Made by a program: the position numbers and the translations under genes. From the NCBI RefSeq assembly GCF_964204865.1, contig NC_135255.1, positions 12,243,135 through 12,307,134 of the forward strand: 64,000 bases of DNA, in the 5' to 3' direction. The DNA comes from Styela clava (lineage: Eukaryota; Chordata; Ascidiacea; Stolidobranchia; Styelidae). Below the pieces are notes generated by a model. It was not told the DNA's origin and did not search any database. It saw only the letters and a list, made by a program, of their open reading frames with translations. The stretch's first letter is position 1. Each line of letters starts with the position of its first letter. Below, one piece after another: positions 2,765-34,868 of the stretch.

Positions 2765-2912
2765 CAGGGGTGGGATTCAGCCGGTTCGCACCGGTTCTAT
2801 AGAACCGTCTCACGGAATTTTATGAGATCAGCGAACCGATTAGCATTACCGGTTACTCTCAATGACTTTTTGTAGAAGAACCGGCTGACAAAAAAATTGA
2901 ATCCCACCACTG
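2765..2912. mobile_element. hAT-type MITE, 148 bp
   Basis: The ends are inverted repeats: CAGGGGTGGGATTCA at the left, and at the right the complement of CAGTGGTGGGATTCA. The flanks TATATATA (2757-2764) and TATATACA (2913-2920) form an 8-bp target-site duplication with one mismatch. CAGGG-type ends and an 8-bp duplication are typical of non-autonomous hAT elements. The TA-rich flank makes the duplication weaker evidence than usual. There is no coding capacity. Confidence 0.75.
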
Positions 2913-2986
2913 TATATACAGTATATATATTGTAATTGTATTAGCCATCCGGAATGATGATCGGAAAACGCTTGGTAAGAATTTTG

Positions 2987-3096
2987 GGACCTCCTGAAGT
3001 ATGCGCACCAAGATGGCGCACAGACTGAAATCAGGTTGTGTACCAGGTTAGGGTTCAGGTTATGCGACATCTTGGTGCGCATACTTCAGGAGTACC
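2987..3096. mobile_element. 110-bp MITE, GGNACTCC-ended family
   Basis: This is an almost complete palindrome. The left end, GGACCTCCTGAAGTATGCGC, pairs with the right end, whose complement begins GGTACTCCTGAAGTATGCGC. It is flanked by a perfect 8-bp duplication GAATTTTG (2979-2986 and 3097-3104). A related copy lies at 57363-57570, and derived copies sit inside the arms of the 13-kb transposon. The superfamily is not assigned: the 8-bp duplication suits hAT or similar, but the ends are not CA...TG. Confidence 0.8.
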
Positions 3097-3178
3097 GAAT
3101 TTTGCCTTGTGTTGTTCATATTGTTGTTATAATATGCTTTGTGGCTTGAGTTAATCAATTGTGTTTTATTCATTTAAG

Positions 3179-3247
3179 AAAATCGCTGTTCTTTGCCAAG
3201 TGTGTAAAGAAGAAGCTGATTTATGCGTGTGTCCTATTTGTGGATAA
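3179..3247 (+). other. Possible terminal exon with a Cys-rich motif
   Basis: After a reasonable acceptor (TTTATTCATTTAAG) there are 22 open codons and a TAA. They encode a peptide with Cys pairs spaced like a small zinc-binding knuckle (LCQVCKEEADLCVCPICG then stop). No upstream exon or family was recognised. It may be the end of a gene or a fragment in a repeat. Confidence 0.2.
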
Positions 3248-14129: not shown

Positions 14130-15900
14130 TGAAACTGAGAAATACACAGAGCATATCACAAATGTTCGCCTATTCCAACCCTATGGTGCAACATATAGAT
14201 TAAACAGATGCTATGTTGTGAGTGTCAAGATATCAATACCAAGTCAAAATTATGGCATTCCAATAATATTGATAAACATTACATAAAATATATCTCAAAT
14301 GTCCACCTATCCGGCCACCTAAGTGTGGCATAAAGGATTTGAAATAAAAATTCTGAAATCATATTGATAAACATTACACAAAATATATCTCAAATGTCAA
14401 CTTATCCGACCACCTAAAGGTGGCATACAACAATTGAAAAAAAAATTCTCAAATAATATTGAGAAACATCACACAAAATATATCTCAAATGTCCGCCTAT
14501 CCGGCCACCTATGTGTGGCATACAAGAATTGAAATAACAATTCTGAAATCATATTGATAAACATTACACAAAATATATCTCAAATGTCAACTTATCCGAC
14601 CACCTAAGGGTGGCATACAACGATTGAAAAAAAAATTCCTAAATCATATTGAGAAACATCACACAAAATATATCTCAAATGTCGTACAAGAATTGAAATA
14701 AATATTCTGAAATCATATTGAGAAATATTACACAAAGTATGTCTCAAATGTCCACCTATCCGGCCACCTAAGTGTGGCGTACTAGAATTGAAATGAAAAT
14801 TCTGAAATCATATTGAGGAACATTACAAAAAGTATATCTCAAATGTCCACATATCCGGCCACCTAAATGTGGCATTAAACATCAAAATGAAAATTCTTAA
14901 ATCGTATTGAGAAACATCATGCAAAATATATCTCAAATGTCCACCAATCCGGCCACCTGAGTGTGGCATTAAACATTAAAATGAAAATTCTGAAATCATA
15001 TTGAGAACATTACACGAAGTATATCTCGAATGTCCACTTATCCGGCCACCTAAGTGTGGCATACAAGAATTGAAATGAAACTTCTGAAATCATATTGAGA
15101 AACATTACACAAAGTATATCTCAAATGTCCACCTATCCGACCACCTAAGTGTGGCATAAAACAATCAAAATGAAGACTCTTGAAATCATATTGAGAAACA
15201 TTACACAAAGTATATCTCAAATGTCCATCTATCCGGCCACCTAAGTGTGGCATGAAACATTAAAATGAAAATTCCGAAATCGTAATGAGAAACATTACAC
15301 AAAGTATATCTCAAATGTCCACCTATCCGGCCACCCAAGTGTGGCATACAAGAATTAAAATGAAAATTCCGAAATTGTAATGAGAAACATTACACAAAGT
15401 ATATCTCAAATGTCCACCTATCCGGCCACCTAAGTGTGGCATACAAGAATTGAAATAAAAATTCTGAAATCATATTGAGAAACATTACACAAAGTATATC
15501 TCAAATGTCCACCTATCCGACCACCTAAGTGTGGCATAAAACAATCACAATGAAAACTCTGAAATCACATTGAGAAACATTACACAAAGTATATCTCAAA
15601 TGTCCACCTATTCGACCATCTAAGTGTGGCATAAAACAATCGCAATGGAAACTCGGAAATCATATTGAGAAACATTACACAAAGTATATCTCAAATGTCC
15701 ACCTATCCGACCACCTAAGTGGGGTATACAAAAATTGAAATGAAAATTCTGAAATAATATTGAGAAACATTACACAAAATATATATCTCAAATGTCTGCA
15801 TATCCGACCACCTAAGTGAGGCATACAACTATTGAAACAAAATTCTGGAATCGTATTGAGAAATCTTACACAAAATAGATCTCACACACTTAAGTGTGTG
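14130..15900. repeat. 95-bp tandem satellite array
   Basis: There are about 17 units with a 95-bp period, measured directly from the phrase CCGGCCACCT at 14311, its variant at 14406, then 14501 and 14596. A unit contains ATATCTCAAATGTCCACCTA, then CCGGCCACCTAAGTGTGGCA and an A-rich spacer. The core CCAC-CTAAGT-GTGG can form a short hairpin. One unit near 14680 has lost its core. Open frames across it are repeat artefacts. Confidence 0.95.
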
Positions 15901-16400: not shown

Positions 16401-17611
16401 ACTATACAAGCGATCAAAATGAAATTATTGAACCTCAATATCAATTTAGAATCTTTGCACAATTTATTTAAAATTTTTGCACCAACTCGGAAAACAAAAA
16501 CATGATTGTTATTTTGAATTTATAATTAAATAGTAAAAATGTATGCCAAGTATGTATACGAATGTGGATATGCTCACTAGGTTAAGTTGTTGAGGAGAGA
16601 CAAGATTATGCTCACTGCCGGTTCATCTTTATGAATTATACAGAGATGTCTTAAAGCTTTACAATAAACTTCTCGCAAGATATACCAATCCGTGCAATTA
16701 TTTTTATTTTCGTCGTTTCTTTTCTGGTTCGCGTTTGTTTAGAAGCTTTTTTTTTAATTGATATACAGCCTTTTTCTTTTCCATATATATGGTTTTCTTT
16801 GAAATCACTTAAATTGCTTATTGAAAGTGATTCTGAAGATGGTGCGGTATAGTCTGTTAACTTATCTGAAACTTTGGTCAAAAATACATGCATAAGTCAC
16901 AAAACATCATCACAGTGTTTTAGTCCAATTCAGAATTACGCTACTCTTGATTGATCGAACAAACGAAATGTTTGAAATGGATAATTGCATTATTACTCAA
17001 ATAAACCAGAGTTTCTAAACGTTGCACTACAATTATTCGTAGATAGCTGCGCTATTTGTGATGGGCTACAAATGATATTATGATTTGGTTTATTACCATT
17101 CATTGGTATCAATTTACGATACTGTATTTAATAAAAAACACTAGCATAGCAAACTCATTTAGTCACCTCCTGGAACAGCTTTCTCCGAATCACTACCCGC
17201 ATTTTCGTCTGCCAAGTTCTGAAACGTAGGCTATCTCGTTGGAGAGTCACCTACATGTGAACAAAAAATACAGCCCGGTGAATAACTAGATGAAGATGGT
17301 AAAATAACACAGGGACATGTGCCAAATCACAAAACAAAATTGCTAGCAATGCAATTCTTCAAAACTGTTTTCCGAAGATGAAATATTCTAATCTAATATG
17401 AAGCGGTGTATTAGATATTTTTATTTACACCAAGCTATACAAACGTCAACTACTCGATTCTCGTATATCCTTCTGTTTCGACAAAAAATTGAATTCATTG
17501 AATTTCCACAATCTTCGTTTGTATTTCCATCTGGATTTAGAAATCCTTCTGAATTACACATTCTTACAAACGCAAACCCAGTCGTAGCATTATTTTGATG
17601 GTCAGATCAGA
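16401..17611. other. Unassigned spacer left of the 13-kb transposon
   Basis: AT-rich DNA without a recognisable gene. Short open frames on both strands show no family features. It ends at the 8-bp target site ACTACGAC (17612-17619). Confidence 0.5.
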
Positions 17612-17619
17612 ACTACGAC

Positions 17620-17890
17620 ACCTAGGTAAAGCTAGCGGCCACTTCCAGCGGACAGTTACCAATTTTTCCAAATTTGAACCCGCCATGTTCCACGACAGTT
17701 GTCGCGAATTCACTTAATTGCGCCTACATGGATGCAAAAAATTAGGCGATTCTCCCTTTTAGAAACTGACGACAGACCTGAAACATAATAAAAAACAAAA
17801 ATGATTGAAACAACACATTTTTTCCTCGATAAAATGAATTATTGCTCAGAAACTCATTTATCGACAAAATCTAAAATTTAACTGAGTTGC
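17620..17890 (+). repeat. Left unique terminal inverted repeat
   Basis: This 270-base outer segment matches the complement of 30387-30657 with only scattered differences, for example CCACTTCCAGCGG against CCACTTACAGCGG. High similarity between the arms means either young age or gene conversion between them. Confidence 0.9.
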
Positions 17891-20114
17891 AGCGTAATTT
17901 ATGCAAGAAATAATTTTTTCTCATCCAATTCATTAATACAGTGAATTTGATGAAGATATATAAAACATATATTAAATTTTAAAACAATTCCACTATGCGG
18001 AAAGTTGGGAAATACCCCCCAATTAAAGGAAAATTTTTAAGAAATTGTCAATATAACTCAGTAAAAGCATAATTTATGCAGTAAATAATATTTTCTCATC
18101 CAATTCATTAATACAATGTATTTGGTGAACAGATATAAAATACATATTGAAACTTAAAAAAAATCCACCGTGCGGAAAGTAGGGAAATTCCCCTCAATTG
18201 AAGAAAAAAATATAAGAAATCTCCAATTTAACTCAGTTAAAGCGTAATTTAGGTAAGAAGGAGTTTTTTCTCATCCAATTCATTAATGCAGTGCGTTTGG
18301 TGGACAAATATAAAATAGATATCGAAATTTAAAAAAAATCCACCGTGCGGACAGTAGGGAAATTCCCCTCAATTCAATGAAAATATTTAAGAAATCGTCT
18401 ATCCAACTCAGTTAAAGCATAATTTATGCAAGAAAGAATATTTTCTCATCCAATTCAATAATACAATGTATTTGGTGAACAGATATAAAATACATATTGA
18501 AACTTAAAAAAAATCCACCGTGCGGAAAGTAGGGAAATTCCCCTCAATTGAAGAAAAAAATATAAGAAATCGTCAATTTGACTCAGTTAAAGCGTAATTT
18601 AGGTAAGAAGGAGTTTTTTCTCATCCAATTCATTAATGCAGTGTTTTTGTTGGACAAATATAAAATACATATTAAAATTTAAAAAAAATCCACCGTGCGG
18701 AAAGTAGGGAAATTCCCCCCAATTGAAGAAAAAAATATAAGAAATCGTCAATTTAACTCAATTAAAGCGTAATTTAGGTAAGAAGGAATTTTTTCTCATC
18801 CAATTCATTAATGCAGTGTGTTTGGTGGACAAATATAAAATACATATTAAAATTTAAAAAAAATCCACCGTGCGGAAAGTAGGGAATTCCTCCTCAATTG
18901 GAGAAAAAAATATAAGAAATCGTCAATTTAACTCAGTTAAAGCATAATTTATGCAAGAAAGAATATTTTCTCATCCAATTCATTGATACGGTGTATTTGG
19001 TGGACAGATATAAAATACATATTAAAATTTAAAAAAAATCCACCGTGCGGAAAGTAGGGAAATTCCCCCCAATTTAATGGAAATATTTAGGAAATCGTCT
19101 ATCCAACTCAGTTAAAAAATAATTTATGCAAGAAAGAATATTTTCTCATCCAATTCATTAATACAGTGTATTTGATGGACGAATATAAAATACATATTAA
19201 AATTTGAAAAAAATCCACCGTGCGGAAAGTAGGGAAATTCCCCCCAATTTGATGAAAATATTTGAGAAATCGTCTATCCAACTCAGTTAAAAAATAATTT
19301 ATGCAAGAAAGAATATTTTCTCATCCAATTCATTAATACGGTGTATTTGGTGGACAAATATAAAATACATATTGAAATTTAAAAAAAATCCACCGTGCGG
19401 AAAGTAGGGAAATTCCCCCCAATTTGATGAAAATATTTGAGAAATCGTCTATCCAACTCAGTTAAAGAATAATTTATGCAAGAAAGAATTTTTTCTCATC
19501 CAATTCATTGATACAGTGTATTTGGTGGACGAATATAAAATACATATTGAAATTTTAAAAAAATCCACCGTGCGGAAAGTAGGGAAATTCCCCTCAATTT
19601 AATGAAAATATTTAAGAAATTGTTTATCCAACTCAGTTAAAAAATAATTTATGCAAGAAAGAATATTTTCTCATCCAATTCATTAATACAGTGTATTTGG
19701 TGGACAAATATAAAATACATATTAAAATTTAAAAAAAATCCACCGTGCGGAAAGTAGGGAAATTCCCCCCAATTGAAGAAAAAAATATAAGAAATCGTCA
19801 ATTTAACTCAATTAAAGCGTAATTTAGGTAAGAAGGAAATTTTTCTCATCCGATTCATTAATGCAGTGTGTTTGGTGGACAAATATGAAATACATATTAA
19901 AATTTAAAAAAAATCCACTGTGCGGAAAGTAGGGAATTCCCCCTCAATTAAAAAATATATATAAGAAATCGTCAATTTGACTCAGTTAAAGCGTAATTTA
20001 GGTAAGAAGGAATTTTTTCTCATCCAATTCATTAATGCAGTGTTTTTGTTGGACAAATATAAAATACATATTAAAATTTAAAAAAAAATCCACCGTGCGC
20101 AAAGTAGGGAAATT

Positions 20115-20234
20115 AGGTACTCTCCAAATATGGACACAAAGATGACGCACAACCTGAATATAAAAGGTGTACCAGGATAGGTTCAGATTTAGAATCTAGA
20201 TTGTACGCTTTTGGGAGCGCAGGGAGTAACCCAT
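20115..20234 (+). repeat. MITE-derived insert in the array, copy 1
   Basis: It begins GGTACTCTCCAAATATGGAC and ends near GGGAGTAACC, resembling the ends and the AACCTGAA/GGTACAC core of the MITE at 2987-3096. A nearly identical segment recurs at about 21229, and inverted at about 27519-27638, so the insert was amplified with the array and is shared by both arms. Confidence 0.7.
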
Positions 20235-21228
20235 TTATGCAAAAAATAATTTTTTCTCATCCAATTTATTAATACAGTGTATTTGATGGATATATATAAA
20301 ATATATATTAAAATATAAAAAAAATCCACCGTGCGGAAAGTAGGGGAATTCCCCTCAATTGAAGAAAAAAATATAAGAAATCGTCGATTTGACTCAGTTA
20401 AAGCGTAATTTAGGTAAGAAGGAGTTTTTTCTCATCCAATTCATTAATGCAGTGTTTTTGGTGGACAAATATAAAATACATATTAAAATTTAAAAAAAAA
20501 TCCACCGTGCGCAAAGTAGGGAAATTCCCCCCAATTGAAGAAAAAAATATAAGAAATCGTCAATTTAACTCAGTTAAAGCATAATTTATGCAAGAAAGAA
20601 TATTTTCTCATCCAATTCATTGATACAATGTATTTGGTGGACAGATATAAAATACATATTAAAATTTAAAAAAAATCCACCGTGCGGAAAGTAGGGAAAT
20701 TCCCCCCAATTTAATGGAAATATTTAGGAAATCGTCTATCCAACTCAGTTAAAAAATAATTTATGCAAGAAAGAATTTTTTCTCATCCAATTTATTAATA
20801 CAGTGTATTTGATGGATATATATAAAATATATATTAGAGTTAAAAAAAAATCCACCGTGCGGAAAGTAGGGAAATTCCCCCCAATTTAATGGAAATATTT
20901 AGGAAATCGTCTATCCAACTCAGTTAAAAAATAATTTATGCAAGAAAGAATTTTTTCTCATCCAATTCATTAATGCAGTGTGTTTGGTGGACAAATATAA
21001 AACAACATATTAAAATTTAAAAAAAATCCACCGTGCGGAAAGTAGGGAATTCCCCATCAATTAAAAAATATATATAAGAAATCGTCAATTTGACTCAGTT
21101 AATGCGTAATTTAGGTAAGAAGGAATTTTTTCTCATCCAATTCATTAATGCAGTGTGTTTGGTGGACGAATATAAAATACATATTAAAATTTAAAAAAAT
21201 CCACCATGCGGAAAGTAGGGAAATTCGG

Positions 21229-21345
21229 TACTCTCGAAATATGGACACAAAGATGACGCACAACCTGAATATAAAAGGTGTACCAGGATAGGTTCAGATT
21301 TAGAATCTAGATTGTACGCTTTTGGGAGCGCAGGGAATAACCCAT
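21229..21345 (+). repeat. MITE-derived insert in the array, copy 2
   Basis: Nearly identical to the insert at about 20115 (GGTACTCTCGAAATATGGAC at the start). The same break point in the host monomer shows that it was duplicated together with the array rather than inserted anew. Confidence 0.7.
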
Positions 21346-22000
21346 TTATACAAAAAATAATTTTTTCTCATCCAATTCATTAATACAGTGTATTTGATGG
21401 ACGAATATAAAATACATATTAAAATTTGAAAAAAATCCACCGTGCGGAAAGTAGGGAAATTCCCCCCAATTTGATGAAAATATTTGAGAAATCGTCTATC
21501 CAACTCAGTTAAAAAATAATTTATGCAAGAAAGAATATTTTCTCATCCAATTCATTAATACGGTGTATTTGGTGGACAAATATAAAATACATATTGAAAT
21601 TTTAAAAAAATCCACCGTGCGGAAAGTAGGGAAATTCCCCCCAATTTGATGAAAATATTTGAGAAATCGTCTATTTAACTCAGTTAAAGCGTAATTTATC
21701 CAAGAAAGAGTATTTTCTCATCCAATTCATTAATACGGTGTATTTGGTGGACAGATATAAAATACATATTAAAATTTAAAAAAAATCCACCGTGCGGAAA
21801 GTAGGGAAATTCCCCCCAATTTGATGAAAATATTTGAGAAATCGTCTATTTAACTCAGTTAAAGCGTAATTTATCCAAGAAATAATATTTTCTCATCCAG
21901 TTCATTAATACAGTGTATTTGATGGTGATATATAAAACGAATATTAAATTTTAAAAATTTCCACCGTGCGGAAAGTTGGGAAATTCCCCTAACTTATGTT

Positions 22001-23434
22001 AAAATCAACGGAATCGTAAATTTATATAAATTAAAGCGAAATCTTGTCATATTTATTGATCATTGACGAACCGTTTAATGCTGTTGGTAAAAAATATCTC
22101 AGAATTTAGAAGACTGTGAAACTGTATTAAAGAGCTAAAGGAAGTATGGCACACTGTCCTAAGACGTTGGAAGAAACGACGATACGATCGATAGCAGCCG
22201 CTACGATCACTGTAAACGTATGAAGAAACTTTCAATTCCCAAATGAAGATACCACATGAATCAATCAACAAATCGTTTTTTATTCGCCAATCACAAAAAA
22301 TGGAAGCAATAAATATCACGAAAAACTTGTATACAGTAGAAACTCTACGTACGAAAGGCTCTGGATACGAAAAATCCAACAATTCTTTTCCGAAAACTTG
22401 CATAGTGATATTTGTTCATTTTAGATTAATTTAATGCAGGGATGTTCAATACAAACCTAATATTTGAATATTGCGACCTTCGAATATCGTATTTGGTGTT
22501 TTTGAGAATACCGAATATGACGCACATTTCCTAGCGCCGTCAAACTTTCGATTTAAAAAAAAAATATTCACAGCTATTCTATTTTTTATCGCAATTGAAA
22601 TCAGCCGTGCGCGTCGTGGCACTAAATTATGGCCAGCATGAAAGAAATTCAAAAAGCGCAATTACAATTATTACACAATATTCACAATTATTATCGTCTA
22701 TTCCAATAAATCTGAAAGCAAATTGTGTCGCAATTAATTGTTTTCACCCTCAATTTCGATAGTGACCGAACATAACGGGAATTTTTTTCATTTCTTGCAA
22801 TTAAGAGTTTATAAAATGACCTTTAAATGTTATTTAATATCTAACGCGGATTTTATCATTATCCCGACGTCGTTGATGACAATATCGTTCACTTTAAGTT
22901 GGCGATATCAATAAGCAAAATTAAAATAATAACACCAGACATGTAAGATTAGCGCCGACTCAAATCAAGTAAAAACCGACTTAAAAAATAAAACAAGTTT
23001 TCTGGTCTTAATTCTCCATCAGTGGCGGACGGTAATTTGGGAATCAATCATTTGATTATGACGATGGTAAACAAAGGTACATAAGCATACCGTTCTTAGT
23101 TTACTGTGTTCTTCCTTCTTTCTATGTTCTTTGTTTATTTATTATGCTGTAATCTAATTCTAACATGTAGTTGTTGGATTTTAAGCATTAATATAATTTA
23201 TACGAAAATGATGTCCGAGTTTTACGTGGACTTAAAACGGATTAGGGCATTTACAGGTAAAACGCCTTATGTAATACCTAGGGTCTTCGGAACGAATTAA
23301 TTTCGTGGGTAGCGCTTCTACTGTATATTCATGGCTCTGTACTCAATGGACAGGTTAACGGGAAATGGCCATTTGATCTACTTGTTAGTGTCAAGTGGCA
23401 ACCCTTTGAAACTTATTTTTACATCAAATGCGTT
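22001..23434. other. Left core of the 13-kb transposon, no recognised gene
   Basis: The sequence has short open frames on both strands without family features. At 22438 a hAT-like start (CAGGGATGTTCAATAC) introduces an ATTCGAAT-rich stretch, perhaps another small element. Nothing here resembles a transposase by eye. Confidence 0.4.
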
Positions 23435-26400
23435 TTAATGCCAACCGGCCTCGTATGCTGGACATTTCCAAAGTACGTCCAATATCTCCGCAATATCTCC
23501 GTTGTAGCATCCAGCATGAAACCAGCGTGGACACACATCACAGCCAATCTTTAAAAAAAGTCAAAATAACATGAAGATAAAATTATATATTGCATGTTTA
23601 TTGAACACCTATTAGGTTACTTACCCATTCTCCTTCTCCCGTCTCCCCACAAAAACTGTAGTACGTCTCCACGCAGTCTGTCAAAAATGTATTTTTTAAC
23701 TGCGTAATGTTTAGATAATTATCTAAATATCAAATATTCATTTCGTCATACCGGAATTCTGAATCACCCAACTGGCAATTTTCGCCCTTTCATCGATTGG
23801 TGAAACAACATGGATGCTTTTAGTTTCCAGCATCATCCAAGCGAACTGCAATCGAATATATGCCAAAGAACCAATAGACAAAATAAGTTGTTTCAAAATA
23901 ACGCAAAATAGTGTGAAGAAAATCATGAGAATGTTGTTTGGTATATGAAAATAAATTAATCAATTCTTATGGAACAATTTCTTGTGAATAAATTGACAAA
24001 GAACATATACTGATGTATGGATAATTAAATTTGTATGACTTCCTATATACCTTTATCACGTAAATTCCACAACTGGATCCATCCCTCTGAATGGGATGTT
24101 CAGTAACCGTTGGTGTCCAGTTTTCGCATTCTTTTCGTAAATTCATCCAGTTTCTGTGTGTTGTAACGTGTGTAAATTTAGTTTTACTAATATACTTTTC
24201 ATGTAACTTCATTTTTAAAAATCAATACTTTTCATTCAATTTCAATGTATTCACAATAGACCTTATTCATTAAAAACCCATCCTACGCGCAAAAAGAAAA
24301 GTGATGTAAAAATTTTTTTTTTAACATTAGCTCTTATGGGGAATGTGATCACCAGAGCAAAAATTTGCATTTTTTGTAATTTTCTAGATATCTTTCAATG
24401 TAGACGTGAGCAGTTTTGAGAATAGAATATTTTTTACATCTCTTTTGATATTTTTATCATGATAAACATGGTCAAGATTTTTGATAATCGTTCATTAAAA
24501 TTTTAATGAGCGCGGTGTTTCCGATGACGTCATTCTCACTAGACCACGAGATTCTGCCAACGCGCCGTGCTCTGTTTGAGTACGGTACCGGTACTGGAAG
24601 CGTTTAACATTGACAATCTATAACCCATGTCATTTCTATCACGTTTTTTTACTGGTTTTACGCATTTATACCTGTACAGCTAGCAATCATTTACTGAAGG
24701 CATGCTGACGTGTTATTTAAACTACTGGTACCGTACCAAGGCTGCAAGAGGTGAAAACTAAATTATTTAGTAAATACTGAAATAGGCCTACGAACAATAC
24801 AAAAATGTTGGCCATCCTGCCAATAGGCAGGATAAGTTGTACGGTACCGGTATACAAAATAGATGAATATCTCCAATCTATAATGCTACAATACCGGTCT
24901 CCTAACTAGGTTAAAAACATGACTGAATACGAGAGAGAGATTTATTTTGTCAACCAGAATACAAGTATTGTATCAATAAAAATTATATACAAAACACACA
25001 GTTATTCGGTATAGACTGGGGAGCGATACGACCATCACAGTCAGCCCCCCCCTGCTCCCCATGTTCGCTATCAAGATTAACAGTTAATTAAGATGTTTGA
25101 ACAATTTAACAAAAACTCCTTGGAGGAAGGGTTGACTAAGTTACGGAACATTTTTGGATTCGGTTAAAAATGTAGTCCATTATTAAACCACTGTTTTTTT
25201 TTTTGTAGATTTTCACTTAGTGGACACTTGGCAGATACGACAGTTAATTTATAAAAAAAAAATTGTAAATTAATAACAAATCATTAGAAGTCAGCTCGGG
25301 TATTCAAACATGTGATGATTGAAGTGAGAAAAAAATTTGAAGTCACGTTTAGGATATTACATTAAACAACAATGGAAGGTACATTGGAATCAGTCAAGCT
25401 TCAAATGCTAATGGCATTAATGAAAAGAATATGCGAAATGAAGACTGAAGTTTCCATCTGAGACATTGGAAGACGCTAAAACCTTATAGACTTGATAGTG
25501 TGGAAAGCCTTCTCACAATGCAGTAATAATGGGACATATATTTATAATATCATTATACAGGCTTTAAGTTGAACTATATGTTTAATTAAAATATCTATCT
25601 TTGCTAATAAATGCTGAAAATCATTTATTTCAATCTGCTGAGTGATTAGGGCCAGAAATTTGCTGTAGGGACCATCACTAGGGCTGGATTTACCAATAGG
25701 CTAGGCAGGCTGAAACCTAGAGCCTCGAAATTCGGTTTCGAAGTTTTTAATCTTTTGAAAACTTGACAAGTTTGAACCCTACGAAAAGTATATATATATA
25801 TGAAGCTTCTCAGAGTAGTAAATTCTGTACATAGTTACATGGAATTTATGAAATATATGACATCCAATAAAAACCAAAATAGGTCTTTCGTTGAACGCCA
25901 GTTGTGGTCCCAGTACCGGTATTCCAGTATCCTGTTATCACATGCAGTTAGAGCGCATATCCCACAGAGCACGACGCGTTGGCAGAATCTCATGGTCTAG
26001 TGAGAATGACGTCATCGAAAACACCGCGCTTATTATAATTTCAATGAACGATTATCAAAAATCTTGACCATGTTTATCATGATAAAAATATCGAAAAAGA
26101 TGTAAAAAATATTCTATCTTCAAAACTGCTCACGTATACGATGAAAGATACCTAGAAAATTACAAAAAATGCAAATTTCTGCTCTGGTGATCACATTCCC
26201 CATAAGAGCCAATGTTAAAAAAAAATTTTTTGCATCACTTTTCTTTTTGCGCGTAGGATGGGTTTTTAATGAATAAGGTCTATTGTCAATGTCACTCCAA
26301 TTGTAAATACAGTTTGTTACTGGTACAATGTGATTATGTAGTTCATATATTATTTGTAAGAACAGGACACGTTTTTACGAAAACAGCCGAATACTTTCAA

Positions 26401-27490
26401 CAAGAGAAATAGAATATTAAAAATAAAGGACTGAATAACTGTAAAGAAGATAATTTTAAAAAATCCACTCCAGGATTTGAAAGCGATCTGGCAACAGTGA
26501 AGTAAAGGTTTATTGAGTTTCTACTTTAGCTTGTAGTTGAAATGGCTAACGATAAGATGTATTTCAGGAATTGAACTCACTTATAATTTTTACATGCGTG
26601 AGCGGTCTCTTCAATTGAACTTCCATACGAATTCAGAAAGTAGAAATTATTTCTCGTTGTGTCAATGAATTACAAAGATATTTTGTTCGAATCAAAATGA
26701 AGAATCAAATACAAAAAAGCAATATGTAATTATGCCACAACAATTTTTTATTTATTGAATATTATTAAAATTTCAAAACAAAACTTCATCCTCACCAAAA
26801 GAACCCAGTGATTTCCATTTATCCTGCACGCAGAAACAATCACGCTATAGTTTCCTAAATTTAACTGTAAAACAAATGAGATGATATAAGTATGATATTA
26901 AAGTGTTGTAGGAAAGATGAATATGGACTTTTTAGATAAAAAAACAATGTCGATTTTTCCAACCCTAATTTTGTTTATACCAATGGTTTTCGATCATAGT
27001 TCCGCAAGTATATTCCAGCAGTTTTACATTCAAATCCGAGGTGTTCAGCGTCAAATTTTTTTTTCATATTTTTGTAACAAAAGTAATCATGAAATCAACT
27101 TATACATATATAAATATATTATATTATAAATCAATTACACCGGGGTTCTCGAGCCTCGGATATATTTATTGGTTGTTTCCTATCCGCCTGAAAAATTAAA
27201 AACATCAAAGATTGAAAGATTGACTTACATCAGTCATTAGATGGTGATGCATGCTGGTATGTTGGTGAAAAATACAACCAGCAATATAACTATCCATAAC
27301 GTAAACATCACGGCGATTCTTTGTCATCAGTTGAAAGGAGTAAATAATAGTCTGAAAGTATGTGCCGATCAAAAAATTTGAGAACAGTTACAAACGAATT
27401 ATAAAAATTATTTAATTGCTTGTGATTGAATAAATTATACTTTTATATCCCATTTGGAATCATGTAGAGGTAGAATTGTTATTGAGTTGT
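23435..27490 (-). pseudogene. Ulp1/C48-type cysteine protease with PHD finger, transposon-borne and decayed
   Basis: Minus-strand exons: 27441-27490, 27229-27351, 26796-26864, 26581-26669, one ending at 24051 (start unclear, at or below 24218), 23752-23845, 23625-23677 and 23435-23548. Phases agree wherever both sides are clear. Protease hallmarks are HDSKWDIK, NGNHWVLL (catalytic His), FYFLNSYGSS where the catalytic Asp is usual, and HPIQRDGSSCGIYVIK (Gln and Cys). The last two exons read as a PHD finger: SFCGETGEGEW, then IGCDVCPRWFHAGC and LWKCPAY, stop. Defects are Asn for the Asp, Tyr for the last zinc Cys, a probable lost acceptor at 26670 (AA for AG), and the nested element at 24254-26285. 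No start codon was found. C48 enzymes cleave SUMO-like proteins; such genes are known passengers of DNA transposons. The role here is unknown. Confidence 0.8.
24254..26285. mobile_element. 2,032-bp inverted-repeat element nested in the protease gene
   Basis: The ends are long inverted repeats of about 330 bases, CAATAGACCTTATTCATTAA inwards at the left and its complement at the right, including ATGACGTCAT and ATCATGATAAACATGGTCAAG in both arms. TCA flanks both sides (24251-24253 and 26286-26288), so a 3-bp target duplication is possible. The middle (about 24590-25950) contains repeated GGTACCGGTA motifs and no recognisable gene. It looks non-autonomous and Foldback-like. It lies between the Asp-position and Gln/Cys exons of the protease gene. 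Confidence 0.85.
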
Positions 27491-27518
27491 CTGTCGGGAA
27501 CAGTAGCAGTCAGACGGT

Positions 27519-27638
27519 CATTTATTCCCTGCGCTCCCAAAAGAGTACAATCTAGATTCTAAATCTGAATCTATCCTGGTACACCTTTTATATTCAGGTT
27601 GTGCGTCATCTCTGTGTCCATATTTCGAGAGTACCGAA
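27519..27638 (-). repeat. MITE-derived insert at the inner edge of the right arm
   Basis: This is the inverted counterpart of the inserts at 20115 and 21229, ending CGAGAGTACC next to the first right-arm monomer. It marks the inner boundary of the right array, whereas the left array continues past its copies. Confidence 0.7.
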
Positions 27639-30386
27639 TTTCCCTACTTTCCGCATGGTGGATTTTTTTTAAATTTTAATATGTATTTTATATTTGTCCA
27701 CCAAATACACCGTATTAATGAATTGGATGAGAAAATATTCTTTCTTGGATAAATTACGCTTTAACTGAGTTAAATAGACGATTTCTCAAATATTTTCTTC
27801 GAATTAGGGGGAATTTCCCTACTTTCCGCACGGTGGATTTTTTTAAAATTTTAATATGTATTTTATATTTTTCCACCAAATACACCGTATTAATGAATTA
27901 GATGAGAAAATATTCTTTCTTGGATAAATTACGCTTTAACTGAGTTAAATAGACGATTTCTCAAATATTTTCATCAAATTGGGGGGAATTTCCCTACTTT
28001 CCGCACGGTGGATTTTTTTTAAATTTTAATATGTATTTTATATTTGTCCACCAAAAACACTGCATTAATGAATTGGATGAGAAAAAACTCCTTCTTACCT
28101 AAATTACGCTTTAACTGAGTCAAATTGACGATTTCTTATATTTTTTTCTTCAATTGAGGGGAATTTCCCCTACTTTCCGCACGGTGTATTTTTTCAAATT
28201 TTAATATGTATTTTATATTTGTCCACCAAAAACACTGCATTAATGAATTGAATGAGAAAAAACTCCTTCTTACCTAAATTACGCTTTAACTGAGTCAAAT
28301 TGACGATTTCTTATATTTTTTTCTTCAATTAAGGGGAATTTCCCTACTTTCCGCACGGTGGATTTTTTTTAAATATTAATATGTATTTTATATTTGTCCA
28401 CCAAATACACTGTATTAATGAACTGGATGAGAAAATATTCTTTCCTGCATAAATTATTTTTTAACTAAGTTGGATAGACGATTTCTTAAATATTTTCATT
28501 AAATTGAGGGGAATTTCCCTACTTTCCGCACGGTGGATTTTTTTTAAATTTTAATATGTATTTTATATTTGTCCACCAAATACACCGTATTAATGAATTG
28601 GATGAGAAAATATTCTTTCTTGGATAAATTACGCTTTAACTGAGTTAAAGAGACGACTTCTCAAATATTTTCTTCAAATTGGGGGGAATTTCCCTACTTT
28701 CCGCACGGTGGATTTTTTTAAAATTTTGATATCTATTTTATATTTGTCCACCAAACACACTGCATTGATGAATTGGATGAGAAAAAATTCCTTCTTACCT
28801 AAATTACGCTTTAACTGAGTCAAATTGACAATTTCTTATATTTTTTTCTTCAATTGAGGGGAATTTCCCTACTTTCCGCACGATGGATTTTTTTTAAATT
28901 TTAATATGTATTTTATATTTTTCCACCAAATACACCGTATTAATGAATTGGATGAGAAAATATTTTTTCTTGGATAAATTACGCTTTAACTGAGTTAAAT
29001 AGACGATTTCTCAAATATTTTCATCAAATTGGGGGGAATTTCCCTACTTTCCGCACGGTGGATTTTTTTTAAATTTTAATATGTATTTTATATTTTTCCA
29101 CCAAATACACCGTATTAATGAATTGGATGAGAAAATATTCTTTCTTGGATAAATTACGCTTTAACTGAGTTAAATAGACGATTTCTCAAATATTTTCATC
29201 AAATTGGGGGGAATTTCCCTACTTTCCGCACGGTGGATTTTTTTTAAATTTTAATATGTATTTTATATTTGTCCACCAAAAACACTGCATTAATGAATTG
29301 GATGAGAAAAAACTCCTTCTTACCTAAATTACGCTTTAACTGAGTCAAATTGACGATTTCTTATATTTTTTTCTTCAATTGAGGGGAATTTCCCCTACTT
29401 TCCGCACGGTGGATTTTTTTTAAATTTCAATATGTATTTTATATTTGTCCACCAAATACACTGTATCAATGAATTGGATGAGAAAATATTCTTTCTTAAA
29501 TAAATTACGCTTTAACTGAGTTAAATAAACGATTTCTCAAATATTTTCATCAAATTGGGGGGAATTTCCCTACTTTCCGCACGGTGGATTTTTTTAAAAT
29601 TTTGATATGTATTTTATATTTGTCCACCAAATACATTGTATTAATGAATTGGATGAGAAAATATTCTTTCTTGCATAAATTATGCTTTAACTGAGTTGGA
29701 TAGACGATTTCTTGAATATTTTCATTAAATTGGGGGGAATTTCCCTACTTTCCGCACGGTGGATTTTTTTTAAATTTTAATATGTATTTTATATCTGTCC
29801 ATCAAATACATTGTATCAATGAATTGGATGAGAAAATATTCTTTCTTGCATAAATTATGCTTTAACTGAGTTGGATAGACGATTTCTTGAATATTTTCAT
29901 TAAATTGAGGGGAATTTCCCTACTTTCCGCACGGTGGATTTTTTTAAAATTTATATATTTATCTTATATTTGTCCACCAAACACATTGCATTAATGAATT
30001 GGATGAGAAAAAATACCTTCTTACCTAAATTACGCTTAAACTGAGTTAAATTGGAGATTTCCTATATTTTTTTCTTAAACTGGGGGGAATTTTTCTACTT
30101 TCCGCACGGTGGATTTTTTTTAAATTTTAATATGTATTTTATATTTGTCCACCAAATACACTGTATTAATGAATTGGATGAGAAAATATTATTTCCTGCA
30201 TAAATTACGCTTTAACTGAGTTATATTGACAATTTCCTAAAAATTTTCCTTTAATTCGGGGGTATTTCCCAACTTTCCGCATAGTGGAATTGTTTTAAAA
30301 TTTAATATATGTTTTATATATCTTCATCAAATTCACTGTATTAATGAATTGGATGAGAAAAAATGATTTCTTGCATAAATTACGCT
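27639..30386 (-). repeat. Right-arm array of 175-bp monomers (16 units)
   Basis: This is the same monomer as in the left arm in inverted orientation. CCCTACTTTCCGCACGGTGG recurs about every 175 bases, in 16 units. Both monomer types are present and intermixed. The last unit (near 30276) is diverged and shares variants with the first left unit (CCAACTTTCCGCATAGTGG), as expected for true arm symmetry. Confidence 0.95.
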
Positions 30387-30657
30387 TCAACTCAGTTAAA
30401 TTTTAGATTTTGTCGATAAATGAGCTTCTGAGCAATAATTCATTTTATCGAGGAAAAAATGTGTTGTTTCAGTCATTTTTGTTTTTTATTATGTTTCAGG
30501 TCTGTCGTCAGTTTCTAAAAGGGAGAATCGCCTAATTTTTTGCATCCATGTAGGCGCAATTAAGTGAATTCGCGACAAATGTCGTTGAACATGGCGGGTT
30601 CAAATTTGGAAAAATTGGTAACTGTCCGCTGTAAGTGGCCGCTAGCTTTACCTAGGT
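30387..30657 (-). repeat. Right unique terminal inverted repeat
   Basis: It is the complement of 17620-17890 with few differences. It ends GCTAGCTTTACCTAGGT at 30657, directly before the target duplication ACTACGAC (30658-30665). Confidence 0.9.
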
Positions 30658-30665
30658 ACTACGAC

Positions 30666-32762
30666 CAGTATAAGCATAACAGTATCAGTAGTCTATATTT
30701 TGATAATCTGGATTACGTGAAAAATCTCAACACCAAAAATATAGTAACCCTAATATTAAAAATCGTTATGACTAATCACCTTATCCGATGAGTGATGATT
30801 TCCAGCAGCATTCCTCGGTGACGTTGAAATCCTTGCTTATTATGACTCGACTTCAACTCACTGGGTAACTGATAACACCTGACACAAAAGACTTGGATCG
30901 CTACTCCAAACACAACTGTTCTATTTTATCTAAATTTCGGCAATCACGCACTCATGAAGATCCCAATCCCCTCACGGCGCCCAGGTTACTTGCGAACAAA
31001 ACGGCAAACGTGGTAAAGTTCTCGGCGAACCCGACAGTTTTACTATTGCGACACAAAGCCTCTTTAGTACGGAGTTGTGAATTGAGGTCCTTTTCAGTTT
31101 ATTGAGCTTATATTGCAAAAAACAGAACGGACGATCTTCATGTTCTGCCTGGTTATTGTATCAAAATTATCAAACCTACTCTCCAAAAATCGTAAAAACA
31201 TATACCGAAAAATTAAAAGATTTTTGCATAAATAAAATGTCCACTTTATGTACGAAAATTAAACCCGTTGATTATAAACCAGCAGAACTACTGTCCCATT
31301 AAAGTTGGCGAAAATGTGCAATTATTTAAAAAATATTGAAAGAACATATTAATTATGATACTGTTTTATCAGAGAAAAAGATATTTCAGCAAAATATCGC
31401 AAAACGTTTTAATTATGGAACGTGGAATAATTAAGCGGACAGGAAAATGTCTACCCAATTTTTCCGTCTACATAACTGTCGCTTTTTTAGCACGGTATGT
31501 CTACTTAACTACCGTATTAGATATATATATATATGATTTCATAATATATATAGTTTATAATTCAAGGTTGTCATCGGAACAGACATTTACCCTTCATAAG
31601 TCTATAAAACTGTGGCTAAAAGGAAATCTCAGAAGTGAAATCGGCTTTATTATATTATATAATACTTTTGTACATCTTGGTATCTATTGTGAATCTACAA
31701 TTTTAAAGGTTTCTGAAAAATATTCTCTGCTATCCTCAGAATATTGGTAACTGGTAAGTTCCTGTTAGGGGTTTTAGGTATGTCATGCGATAGAATCGGT
31801 ACAACTCATTCTAATAAATATCTCATCTTCGCGTGAAACCCTAAGCTTTCATTGGTGTAAACTCGATTATTTCGCTATACTACATACAAACTATACCTGT
31901 ATGTGCGTCACTGTTACGCCACTTATGAATTCAGTACCATGATACTTTGATATGGTTAACGCAAATAGAACTGAATTTCAGCTGCTGTTAAAATTTTGTT
32001 CATCTGTGCTCCTATTTGCAATTGATGCGCTACGCATGCTTCCTCAGTACAGTACTGTATACATTTCTGTGCAGCATCAGGCAACGACAGCGTTACCACC
32101 GCTGACATACTGCGGAAGTTATTGTAGGATCGATTATAGGTATAAACACGCGATACACGGCACTTCATTTTTAAACTTTGGCAGGGGAAAAACTTGGCAT
32201 TCGTTACGTAATAATATGCTTTATCGGGCTCGTCCAGACTCAAATACTGTGTATGTGTATATTGTATTTTGCGCATGTAAAGTACTGTATTCTTCCTGTT
32301 GTAAAACCCACAACAGGTTCGAGGCATTTCAATTTCGGGGGTATTTCAATAAAATTCACTCAACTTCAGATGCGATCGACTGCTCGAGAAGTGGCAATCG
32401 ACCGGTCGATCGCGATCGACGTGTTGGCCACCCCTGGTATAAATGGTTAATCTTCTTAGGTAATCAAGCAATTGTTGCAATGGATATATGTTTTATCTTT
32501 TCAACACACGAATGAAGCTGTATATTAACACAGGTTCATCTCATTAGTTGCCTCGTAGCTTTGGAACGAGCAGTCAATACTGAAAGAGCAAACATAGTTC
32601 CACAAAAAGCGCATTAGCTGTCCTATATCAATAAGTTGAATGACCCGTTCCGGTACTCCATCCCCTTTTTCTCGCTTTTGTCACTGTACATTTGTAAGTA
32701 TTTTCATTTATTTTCTCACACCGACATTGTTTGACACAAGAATCGACACCGGTGATATTGCT
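30666..32762. other. Unassigned spacer with repeat fragments
   Basis: No gene is recognised. The open frames of 131 and 187 codons (31355-31750 and 31952-32515, plus strand) show no domain or codon pattern that I trust. A repeat end like that at 13613 lies at about 31425-31525, and a hAT-like right end (TGGCCACCCCTG) ends at 32436 inside the longer frame. That frame is therefore probably not a real gene. Confidence 0.45.
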
Positions 32763-33108: not shown

Positions 33109-33644
33109 CAAAACATAAATGTTCGTTTATTTATTTATTATAAGCTTGTACTGAGCAGAACATATATTTAGTATAGTTCTCAATTGAACAAACATTCCTA
33201 AAGAACGATCTACGGTAGGTTGTTATATATTACTCCATAAGCCTTTGAATTTGATGATACTGGGAACTTAAAACTTGATATCCAAATTCCAGTAAGAAAA
33301 GTCAACAGTCAACACCGAGTTACTACTATTAAATTCGAACGCTTCATTTGTACAGACGTTCCGCATCGCCGAGCCGCAAGTTGCGTAGACGACACCGAGT
33401 TACCTGGTGCAGTGTAGGTGTAGTCATACTACAGTGTTATTGTAATTTCCATTTCGACAGTAGCGGTACAAGAATTAATTATGAACTTTACGTGACAAGA
33501 TAAGGCTGGTGTTATGGTTCGCGCACCACTTCTTTCCAAATTTGAAAGCCTGCATTGAAGTATGAGAAACTGGTTTTCTAAGTAAATGACTGTTTCGTGA
33601 TTCGTGACCAAGTCGATCAAATTTCAGAATATAGATAGTGTGGT
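33109..33644. other. Spacer upstream of the IRE1-like gene
   Basis: No gene is recognised. The promoter and 5' UTR of the single-exon gene must lie here, but no core promoter motif stands out. Confidence 0.4.
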
Positions 33645-34868
33645 ATGGACGGTATCGATCACGAGCCCTCATGGACCACTGTGGGAAGCAAGAGCATTAT
33701 TGAAATCGACACAAAAGGTGTTTTCGGATATGGAGTGTCAAGCAAAGTGTATAGTGGTAGATTTGACGAAAGACCAGTAGCTGTGAAAAGAATTAACCCT
33801 TCTTTATCAAAATTTGAATGCGAGGTAGAAACTTTGCGTCGACTCGATCACAGAAATATTGTTAGATATTTATATACAGATTCAGATAACGAATTTGTTT
33901 ATATTGTACTTGAACGATGCGATTGTTCCCTTCAAGATTGCCTCGATAAAAAAATGAATACGTGCGGTTTATTGGACGACGAGTTGGACGTTCTAAAGCA
34001 AATATCAGCTGGTCTATTATATTTACACAGTAAGTCCATTTTGCATAGGAATATACATCCATCTAACGTTTTACTCACAAGGAAAGACGGTATTGTCGTA
34101 GTCAGGCTTTCTGACTTTGGAGTCGTAAAAAATGTCGAAGAAGACTTCTCAATTTCAGCGTCGGTAATGGGAGAAGCAGGAAATTATTTCAGTCCTGAAG
34201 TTTTGAGGAAACAGAAAATTAGTAAAAAGTCTGATGTTTTTTCGCTCGGTCTCGTGTATTTCAGCGTACTGAGTGATGGCAAAAGCCCATACGGAGACGA
34301 CGGGGAAGACATTATTAAGAATGTACGAGCCGGCATCTCTCCTAATTTTGCTGCAGTGTCTTCTAAGTATAATGGTTATGCAGTACCTCTACTTATTTCT
34401 ATGCTAAACGATAAAAAGAGATTTCGCCCTTTGGTTACTGATGTACTTGCACATTATCTTTTCTGGGACCCTGACATGGTCTTCACGTTTTTTCAAGATG
34501 TCAGCGATTACTTAACGGATAACATGAACAGCCCGAGAGTCGAGATGGAACTGATTTCTCGCGAGATTATTGGAAGTCAACACTGGCAAACTAAATTATT
34601 GACTAATTTATTTAACGCTGAAATTCGCTTATTTCAAAAAGAATTTAATGCCTATCGCCTGAAAGATGACGTAATAGGTCTGTTACGCCAAATCCGTAAC
34701 TGGGGCCATCACTATCATAGCAAATCACGGCGATTAAAAAACATAATAGGGGAAACAAAAAATCAAATGTTAACTTATATGACATCACTTTTTCCATTGC
34801 TGTTACCGAAAACGTACGATGTCTTTCAAGTCGTAAAAACGAATCCAAGTTTTTCTGACTACTATTGA
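33645..34868 (+). CDS. Soluble IRE1/RNase L-like pseudokinase-KEN ribonuclease
   Basis: A single 407-codon exon. Residues about 22-275 form a protein kinase fold like that of IRE1: glycine loop FGYGVSSKVYSG, VAVKR with Lys48, DFG at 157-159, SPEVL and the DVFSLGLVYF helix. The catalytic loop reads HRNIHPSN (134-141), with Asn136 for the essential Asp and His138 for Lys, so phosphotransfer is unlikely although ATP may still bind. Residues about 273-400 form a KEN RNase domain, starting FWDPDMVFTFFQDVSD. The residues equivalent to human IRE1 Tyr892, Asn906 and His910 are present (Tyr337, Asn352, His356, in IRNWGHHYHS). There is no signal peptide, lumenal sensor, membrane segment or ankyrin repeats, so it should be cytosolic. 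AATAAA lies near 35350. It may be a stress or antiviral RNase, or an intronless IRE1-derived copy. Family firm, role inferred. Confidence 0.93.
   Translation: MDGIDHEPSWTTVGSKSIIEIDTKGVFGYGVSSKVYSGRFDERPVAVKRINPSLSKFECEVETLRRLDHRNIVRYLYTDSDNEFVYIVLERCDCSLQDCLDKKMNTCGLLDDELDVLKQISAGLLYLHSKSILHRNIHPSNVLLTRKDGIVVVRLSDFGVVKNVEEDFSISASVMGEAGNYFSPEVLRKQKISKKSDVFSLGLVYFSVLSDGKSPYGDDGEDIIKNVRAGISPNFAAVSSKYNGYAVPLLISMLNDKKRFRPLVTDVLAHYLFWDPDMVFTFFQDVSDYLTDNMNSPRVEMELISREIIGSQHWQTKLLTNLFNAEIRLFQKEFNAYRLKDDVIGLLRQIRNWGHHYHSKSRRLKNIIGETKNQMLTYMTSLFPLLLPKTYDVFQVVKTNPSFSDYY

What the first reader, a model, noticed from the sequence alone, without database searches (positions are those of the whole stretch)
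17612..30665. A complete 13-kb transposon with satellite-filled inverted arms
The sequence shows matching ends ACCTAGGTAAAGC, a perfect 8-bp duplication ACTACGAC, unique inverted outer ends of about 270 bases, and inverted arrays of one 175-bp monomer (23 and 16 units). The core holds a C48 protease-PHD gene and no transposase that I can recognise. Foldback and Galileo elements have long repetitive arms, and Zisupton/KDZ, hAT and P elements make 8-bp duplications. I know no named family with this combination of ends, arms and cargo. It may be an undescribed family whose arms generate satellite DNA.
Basis: partly seen in the sequence, partly recalled or inferred. Interest (0 to 1): 0.92.

Follow-up and report, generated by a model that had tools for sequence, protein, structure and literature searches.

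The report
Foldback Mutator-type transposon with satellite arms
This is a genuine, recently active jumping gene with no working engine of its own; its inverted arms are built of repeated 175-base units, and it looks like a new family of an already known kind (Mutator/Rehavkus-type foldback transposons), so it is a solid but not revolutionary find.

Summary
Window 17620-30657 is a complete 13,038-bp transposon flanked by ACTACGAC: 255-bp unique inverted ends, inverted arrays of one 175-bp monomer, and a 5.6-kb core of which 2,024 bp is a later nested insertion. The genome holds at least 26 convergent pairs of these ends. In 13 pairs read end to end (window included) target duplications are perfect, 9 bp in 9 and 8 bp in 4; a second-subfamily copy has 9 bp. 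The window's joined flanks match other genome places without interruption (39 of 42 listed matches cross the junction).

8-9 bp TSDs, a terminal palindrome, long TIRs and tandem-repeat arms point to the Mutator (MULE) superfamily, closest in anatomy to Rehavkus-1_TC and Tetris, rather than KDZ, hAT or P. The C48/PHD cargo looks like a decayed passenger. No copy read holds a MULE domain, and no MULE match lies within 13 kb of a family end. A PHD-finger MULE family and FLYWCH MULEs elsewhere in the genome are candidate drivers. Free satellite was not seen: 143 of 150 listed monomers lie inside paired elements, 7 at two loci with one recognised end.

The parts
17612..17619 (.). left target-site duplication ACTACGAC
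   Evidence: joined flanks with one copy give 39 junction-crossing matches (the letters at those places were not read)
17620..17874 (+). left outer unique TIR (255 bp), beginning with the 8-bp palindrome ACCTAGGT
   Evidence: 25 of 26 ends of the 13 copies read start ACCTAGGTAAAGC
17875..21990 (+). left arm: array of 175-bp monomers with two 117-118-bp spacer units (20115-20232, 21227-21343)
21991..27635 (.). core; 22067-24257 and 26282-27639 are shared with other copies, in either orientation
23440..23680 (-). two decayed exons resembling a PHD finger (TYYSFCGETG..., CDVCPRWFHAGC...), approximate limits
   Evidence: read by eye; codon counts; 15-aa match of 23498-23542 to the PHD exon of L029, E 7e-4
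23967..24221 (-). open frame with the C48 (Ulp1)-like motif HPIQRDGSSCGIYVIK; passenger exon
   Evidence: (PF02902, E 0.066, below cut-off)
24258..26281 (.). nested 2,024-bp insertion with 327-bp inverted repeats at its ends (24249-24575 / 25964-26290, 94.2%); not matched in the other 12 copies, not part of the family
   Evidence: uninterrupted site read in C9b
27522..27639 (.). 118-bp spacer unit at the inner edge of the right arm
27636..30402 (-). right arm: 15.8 unit lengths of the same 175-bp monomer, inverted
30403..30657 (-). right outer unique TIR (255 bp)
30658..30665 (.). right target-site duplication ACTACGAC

Best explanation
It is a non-autonomous cut-and-paste DNA transposon of the Mutator (MULE) superfamily, of the foldback kind, most like Rehavkus. 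A MULE transposase made elsewhere in the genome (inferred; best candidates the PHD-finger MULE family of L029 or the FLYWCH MULEs) binds the terminal repeats, excises the element and inserts it at a 9-bp, less often 8-bp, staggered cut. Shown: ends, 8/9-bp duplications, uninterrupted sites, copy number, low divergence. The arms grow and shrink by slippage or unequal exchange between 175-bp units (inferred from the 6.8-36 unit range per arm). The C48/PHD core is a hitch-hiking decayed gene piece (inferred from its substitutions).
For: TSDs: 9 bp in 9 of 13 and 8 bp in 4 of 13 complete copies, plus 9 bp in L052. The same 8/9 mixture is reported for Muta1, with a terminal palindromic motif and subterminal tandem repeats (PMC5225508, passages), and 8-11 bp for MULEs in general (PMC6446971, passages). 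The terminal octamer ACCTAGGT is a perfect palindrome. Insertion: 39 of 42 listed matches cross the junction of the window's joined flanks, and 18 of 28 do so at 88% identity or more for copy C9b, two more at 72 and 79%. Family size: 26 distinct convergent pairs of ends 2,978-18,003 bp apart, 14 of them read in full. Youth: outer TIRs of one element differ by 1.2-2.7% (median 2.0%), about as much as TIRs of different elements (median 2.35%). Anatomy matches Rehavkus-1_TC (9.5 kb, 164-bp units in inverted termini; PMC10218199, passages). MULE transposases are abundant here: 82 PF10551 matches, among them L029 with a PHD-like exon upstream of the MULE domain (E 7.5e-12).
Against: No copy read holds a transposase: held MULE exons (L029, L030, L034) match none of the 13 elements, L052, L051 or the fetched part of the large C2 copy at E 1 or better, apart from a 15-17-aa PHD motif. 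No MULE match lies within 13 kb of 69 family ends or exact terminal 13-mers; the nearest, 13.4 kb, is beside a bare 13-mer. So superfamily membership rests on TSD length and anatomy. The L029 family shows no terminal repeat of this kind; its 3' flank runs into another common repeat. The 8/9 TSD mixture fits Muta/Phantom MULEs at least as well as Rehavkus (9 bp in PMC6446971).
Confidence: 0.78

Rival explanations
1. A non-autonomous foldback element of the P superfamily (Galileo-like) or of hAT or KDZ/Zisupton, whose transposases make 8-bp duplications; the C48 gene would then be accessory cargo of such an element.
For: The window copy and 3 other copies have 8-bp TSDs; Galileo has arms with internal tandem repeats (PMC4079207, passages). 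That these superfamilies make 7-8 bp TSDs is recalled.
Against: 9 of 13 complete copies, plus L052, have 9 bp. PF18758 (KDZ) gave no match, though its control also rang nowhere, so that is weak. P and hAT families were not searched.
Confidence: 0.1
2. An undescribed superfamily with its own, unrecognised transposase, of which only non-autonomous copies survive in this assembly.
For: No MULE gene is linked to the ends found, and no open frame in the 13 cores exceeds 120 aa.
Against: TSD lengths, terminal palindrome and repeat-bearing long TIRs are all ordinary for MULEs (PMC5225508, PMC6446971, PMC4079207, passages).
Confidence: 0.1
3. The C48-PHD gene is a working accessory gene of an autonomous element, and the copies seen are slightly damaged autonomous elements.
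For: The C48 exon is kept in 19 places (window included) at 95-100% identity, plus one 90% partial copy. Two of the five exon pieces vary less than the rest of the core (0.0040 and 0.0030 against 0.0084 per site).
Against: In 10 cores the exon codons carry 27 non-synonymous, 6 synonymous and 3 stop differences from the consensus, and third positions vary least (13, 15, 8); no core read holds a transposase.
Confidence: 0.05
4. Assembly artefact or chance inverted satellite arrays rather than a transposon.
For: Long arrays are hard to assemble, so individual array lengths may be off (general knowledge).
Against: 26 pairs of ends at different sites, distinct perfect TSDs in 13 of 13 copies read and uninterrupted sites.
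Confidence: 0.01

Closest known systems
Rehavkus, in particular Rehavkus-1_TC of Tribolium (Repbase 2006; seen only through passages of PMC10218199 and PMC6446971)
   Same: Long element (9.5 kb) with short tandem arrays of a 164-bp unit in its inverted termini; 9-bp TSD; TIR 26-400 bp; a PHD finger is present (there in the transposase, here in the cargo)
   Different: No transposase in any copy read here; arms far longer (up to ~36 units against mostly 5 and 8); 8- and 9-bp TSDs mixed; a C48 piece in the core; the Rehavkus sequence itself could not be compared
Tetris of Drosophila virilis (PMC4079207, abstract and passages)
   Same: Non-autonomous foldback element, outer unique TIR domain followed by ~220-bp tandem repeats, TSD 8-9 bp in complete copies and 8-10 bp overall, no transposase copy found, assigned to Mutator on TSD size
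   Different: Tetris repeats also form free satellite arrays, not seen here; only three complete copies; middle without coding capacity
Tm1 Mutator/Foldback elements of root-knot nematodes (PMC3169594, passages)
   Same: Composite TIRs with variable numbers of tandem repeats, mostly 9-bp TSDs (8-10 bp), non-autonomous groups carrying non-transposase sequence
   Different: ~14-bp repeat unit, asymmetric 7-bp ends; a transposase-encoding group exists
Muta/Phantom MULEs (PMC5225508, PMC6446971, passages)
   Same: 8-9 bp TSDs, long TIRs, terminal palindrome, subterminal tandem repeats, non-autonomous derivatives with gene fragments; a FLYWCH MULE is present in this genome (L034)
   Different: Subterminal repeats are 9-15 bp in Muta; no linked transposase here
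Galileo (P superfamily)
   Same: Foldback arms with internal tandem repeats (PMC4079207, passages)
   Different: P-type transposase and shorter TSD (recalled); here mostly 9 bp

Membership tests
Mutator (MULE) superfamily | 8-11 bp TSD, commonly 9 | tested here: met
   9 bp in 9 of 13, 8 bp in 4 of 13; L052 9 bp; criterion from PMC6446971
Mutator (MULE) superfamily | long TIRs (often hundreds of bp) | tested here: met
   255-bp unique TIR plus arrays in 13 of 13 copies read
Mutator (MULE) superfamily | mobilised by a MULE DDE transposase sharing the TIRs | tested here: not met
   No MULE domain in the 13 copies, L052, L051 or the fetched part of the large C2 copy; none within 13 kb of 69 ends. 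Non-autonomous members lack it, so the claim is 'works like a MULE'; membership is unproven
Rehavkus | 9-bp TSD | tested here: met
   majority of copies; but 4 of 13 have 8 bp
Rehavkus | tandem repeats (mini-satellite or ~164-bp satellite units) at the inverted termini | tested here: met
   against PMC10218199 and PMC6446971
Rehavkus | one ORF: transposase with PHD finger | tested here: not met
   absent from the copies read; a PHD-MULE family exists elsewhere in the genome but not next to these ends
Rehavkus | sequence similarity to Rehavkus TIR or transposase | not testable with these tools
   no Rehavkus sequence at hand
Foldback-type elements (structural class) | long inverted arms made of tandem repeats, variable in number | tested here: met
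   6.8-36 unit lengths per arm in 13 copies
KDZ/Zisupton | KDZ transposase | tested here: inconclusive
   PF18758: no match in the genome, but control silent too
P / Galileo and hAT | 7-8 bp TSD (recalled) | tested here: not met
   9 of 13 copies have 9 bp
P / Galileo and hAT | P or hAT transposase | not tested
   families not searched

The most novel reading that the evidence does not exclude
The 175-bp monomers are not inert filler but arrayed copies of a degenerate terminal motif (ACTCAGTTAAAGC against the terminus ACCTAGGTAAAGC, 10 of 13) that titrate or recruit transposase, so that selection for mobility itself expands satellite-like arms; this would be a PHD-MULE (Rehavkus) lineage in which transposon competition builds tandem DNA with a spacer-punctuated higher order.
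Probability: 0.18. Interest if true: 0.6.

Novelty: new member of a known kind. Interest (0 to 1): 0.4.

Why it matters
Foldback transposons with tandem-repeat arms are a proposed source of satellite DNA (PMC4079207). This family gives at least 26 paired copies in one assembly, with arms of very different length and uninterrupted sites to compare, so arm growth and loss can be followed copy by copy. It also suggests a further Rehavkus-like system, a group of which PMC6446971 says very few elements have been identified, described in Repbase only.

Tried and rejected
KDZ origin: PF18758 search empty, control silent; the TSDs speak against it more than that search does. Autonomous copy by relaxed ends: the 21-mer with up to 3 mismatches and the 13-mer with up to 1 (284 places against 396 for the control, list cut short) gave no pair enclosing a MULE match; the closest case, C8:24234304 beside a bare 13-mer at C8:24247751, was judged chance. 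The large C2 copy (790831-808833) was opened in the hope of a transposase; its fetched part carries a nested LINE. C6:8510216 (L051), the 90% C48 match, lies in an old decayed copy with arms at about 80-88%. The L029 3' flank was searched for arms: another common repeat. Monomer-terminus similarity (10 of 13): 38 of 2000 dinucleotide shuffles reach it, so only suggestive. No junction-crossing match for 14 joined flanks in the loci held. Species identity was not determined.
Full report
What is there. The element runs from 17620 to 30657 (13,038 bp) between two copies of ACTACGAC (17612-17619, 30658-30665). Its outer 255 bp are unique inverted repeats that begin with ACCTAGGTAAAGC; the first eight bases are a perfect palindrome. 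Inside each end lies an array of one 175-bp monomer, inverted between the arms: about 22 monomers plus two 117-118-bp spacer units on the left (17875-21990) and 15.8 unit lengths on the right (27636-30402). The spacer recurs in other copies, so the arms have a higher-order structure.

The family. The window lies in a 376.6-Mb assembly. A search with the left end scored 40 of 74 candidates and listed 40 matches at 97-100% identity. The 21-bp terminus with up to 3 mismatches has 65 matches, against 1 for the reversed pattern; the bare 13-mer with 1 mismatch is not enriched (284 against 396). Of the 65, 52 form 26 distinct convergent pairs 2,978-18,003 bp apart and 13 are single ends; the pairing script also held four exact 13-mers and printed 27 rows because two left ends share one right end. 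I read 13 pairs end to end, the window and 12 fetched; all 13 have perfect duplications, 9 bp in 9 and 8 bp in 4. A second subfamily has termini ...GGAC; the 6.1-kb C2 copy among the 13 belongs to it by its ends, and a further small copy (L052) has a 9-bp duplication, arms 86-88% identical to the window and C2 copies, and an inverted duplication of a core piece. Of the 26 pairs, 14 were thus read in full.

Uninterrupted sites. The window's flanks joined with one ACTACGAC match other places in the genome: 42 matches are listed (40 scored of 67 candidates), 39 cross the junction and 35 cover all 500 bases, the best at 99% identity. Of the other three, one is the filled site's right half and two are partial right-hand pieces; the filled site's left half is not in the list. 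For copy C9b, inserted in what reads by eye like a LINE reverse transcriptase, 18 of 28 matches cross the junction at 88% identity or more, the best at 100%, two more cross at 72 and 79%, and the filled site appears as two half matches. The element therefore inserted at the stated boundary with duplication of 8 or 9 bp. These are other copies of the host repeat, not the same site in another individual, and their letters at the target were not read.

Core and cargo. Window segments 22067-24257 and 26282-27639 recur in other copies at 94-99% identity (the repeated spacer piece at 87-97%). Of the 12 others, 9 have both segments, some with internal gaps; C1 has the first and part of the second, C17b only about 300 bp, and C2 (16173399) only spacer matches. 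The 2,024 bp between them are matched in none of the 12, and C9b shows the uninterrupted site. The minus strand holds short exons resembling a C48 protease (PF02902, E 0.066, below the cut-off) and a PHD finger (read by eye; a 15-17-aa match to the PHD exon of L029 in 11 of the 13 elements and in the large C2 copy, E 7e-4 to 0.016). In 10 cores (the window, C17b and C2 left out of 13) five exon pieces carry 27 non-synonymous, 6 synonymous and 3 stop differences from the consensus, with 136 gapped codons set aside; by codon position the changes are 13, 15 and 8. Per-site variation is 0.0030-0.0167 in the exon pieces, two of them below and three above the 0.0084 of the rest. I read the C48-PHD piece as a decayed passenger; the two quieter exons are the counter-evidence.

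Age and arms. The two outer TIRs of one element differ by 1.2-2.7% (median 2.0%), about as much as TIRs of different elements (median 2.35%), as expected of a recent burst without homogenisation between the two ends. Arms range from 6.8 to 36 unit lengths among 13 copies. Of 150 monomer matches listed (821 counted, in 40 scored of 91 candidate places), 143 lie inside the 26 pairs and 7 at two loci with one recognised end (C16:20.61 Mb, C10:19.26 Mb).

Which engine. No open frame in the 13 cores exceeds 120 aa, and held MULE exons of L029, L030 and L034 match nothing but the PHD motif in the 13 elements, L052, L051 and the fetched part of the large C2 copy, while the same queries find their own loci, and the L029 and L034 queries also related loci. 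The genome has 82 matches to the MULE domain PF10551. L029 has a PHD-like exon (PF00628, E 0.0002, 21.7 bits against a cut-off of 24) upstream of MULE exons (E 7.5e-12), with DDE-like motifs (DGTFD, DFEAA, NHLEGWH; recognised from memory). Three near-identical copies (97-100%) and many decayed relatives are among 106 matches. A PHD finger in a MULE-type transposase is the mark that PMC6446971 (section 8 and passages) gives for Rehavkus. A MULE with a FLYWCH domain was confirmed at one locus (L034), and L031, L032 and L036 look alike by eye. Among 109 MULE places and 69 ends the nearest distance is 13.4 kb, beside a bare 13-mer, so the driver is inferred, not shown.

Known kinds. Rehavkus-1_TC is a 9.5-kb transposon whose inverted termini carry arrays, mostly of five and eight, of a 164-bp unit (PMC10218199, passages); Table 1 of PMC6446971 lists Rehavkus with 9-bp TSD, TIR 26-400 bp, PHD finger and minisatellite, and Phantom with 8-10 bp TSDs and, in aphids, a minisatellite. 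Tetris (PMC4079207, abstract and passages) has ~220-bp units in its TIRs, TSDs of 8-10 bp and no known transposase, and was placed in Mutator on TSD size. Tm1 (PMC3169594, passages) is another Mutator/Foldback family with mostly 9-bp TSDs. Muta1 (PMC5225508, passages) shows the same 8/9-bp mixture, a terminal palindrome and subterminal tandem repeats. I therefore place the element as a new non-autonomous family of a known kind: by TSD and anatomy a Mutator-type foldback element, most like Rehavkus, with membership unproven. The literature searches behind this were made; none listed a paper on this particular family.

A speculative point. The monomer contains ACTCAGTTAAAGC, 10 of 13 identical to the terminus and in the same orientation; 38 of 2000 dinucleotide shuffles do as well. 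Extra transposase-binding sites in arm repeats are reported for Galileo (as told in PMC4079207), so the arms may be selected for, but the evidence here is weak.

Noticed in passing
24258-26281: Nested 2,024-bp insertion with 327-bp inverted repeats (94.2% identical) and ends AGACC...GGTCT; the uninterrupted site is seen in copy C9b.
   Followed up: partly
14262-15884: Array of 17.4 copies of an unrelated 95-bp tandem unit 1.7 kb left of the element.
   Followed up: no
38447-41014: Head-to-tail duplication of 1,286 bp at 99.84% identity; recent duplication or assembly effect.
   Followed up: no
33639-34868: Open frame of 409 aa with a protein kinase domain followed by Ribonuc_2-5A (IRE1/RNase L-like architecture, name recalled).
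   Followed up: partly
window flanks 17370-17619 and 30666-30915: The element sits inside another dispersed repeat with dozens of copies.
   Followed up: partly
L030 632-681 and 706-753: A small inverted pair near a ZSWIM-type MULE locus matches about 50 bp at the spacer of the arms (80-88%, best E 3.5e-5 against the 13 elements).
   Followed up: no
L035 35-1421 / 1917-3303: A MULE transposase gene of the L029 family arranged as a foldback with 1,387-bp arms at 99.64% identity.
   Followed up: no
L037-L038 (G000:C2:793400-807400): A copy of the family carries a nested LINE with two near-identical reverse-transcriptase frames in tandem (971 and 1,013 aa).
   Followed up: partly
G000 C5:18272457/18279260, C8:15522210/15530123, C17:12057373/12065113: Pairs of strong C48 protease matches in divergent orientation 6-8 kb apart, as if held in the arms of another large inverted element.
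   Followed up: no
G000:C6:23737482 and C6:23742847: A C48 match in a 1,013-aa open frame lies 5 kb from a MULE match; possible C48-bearing MULE.
   Followed up: no
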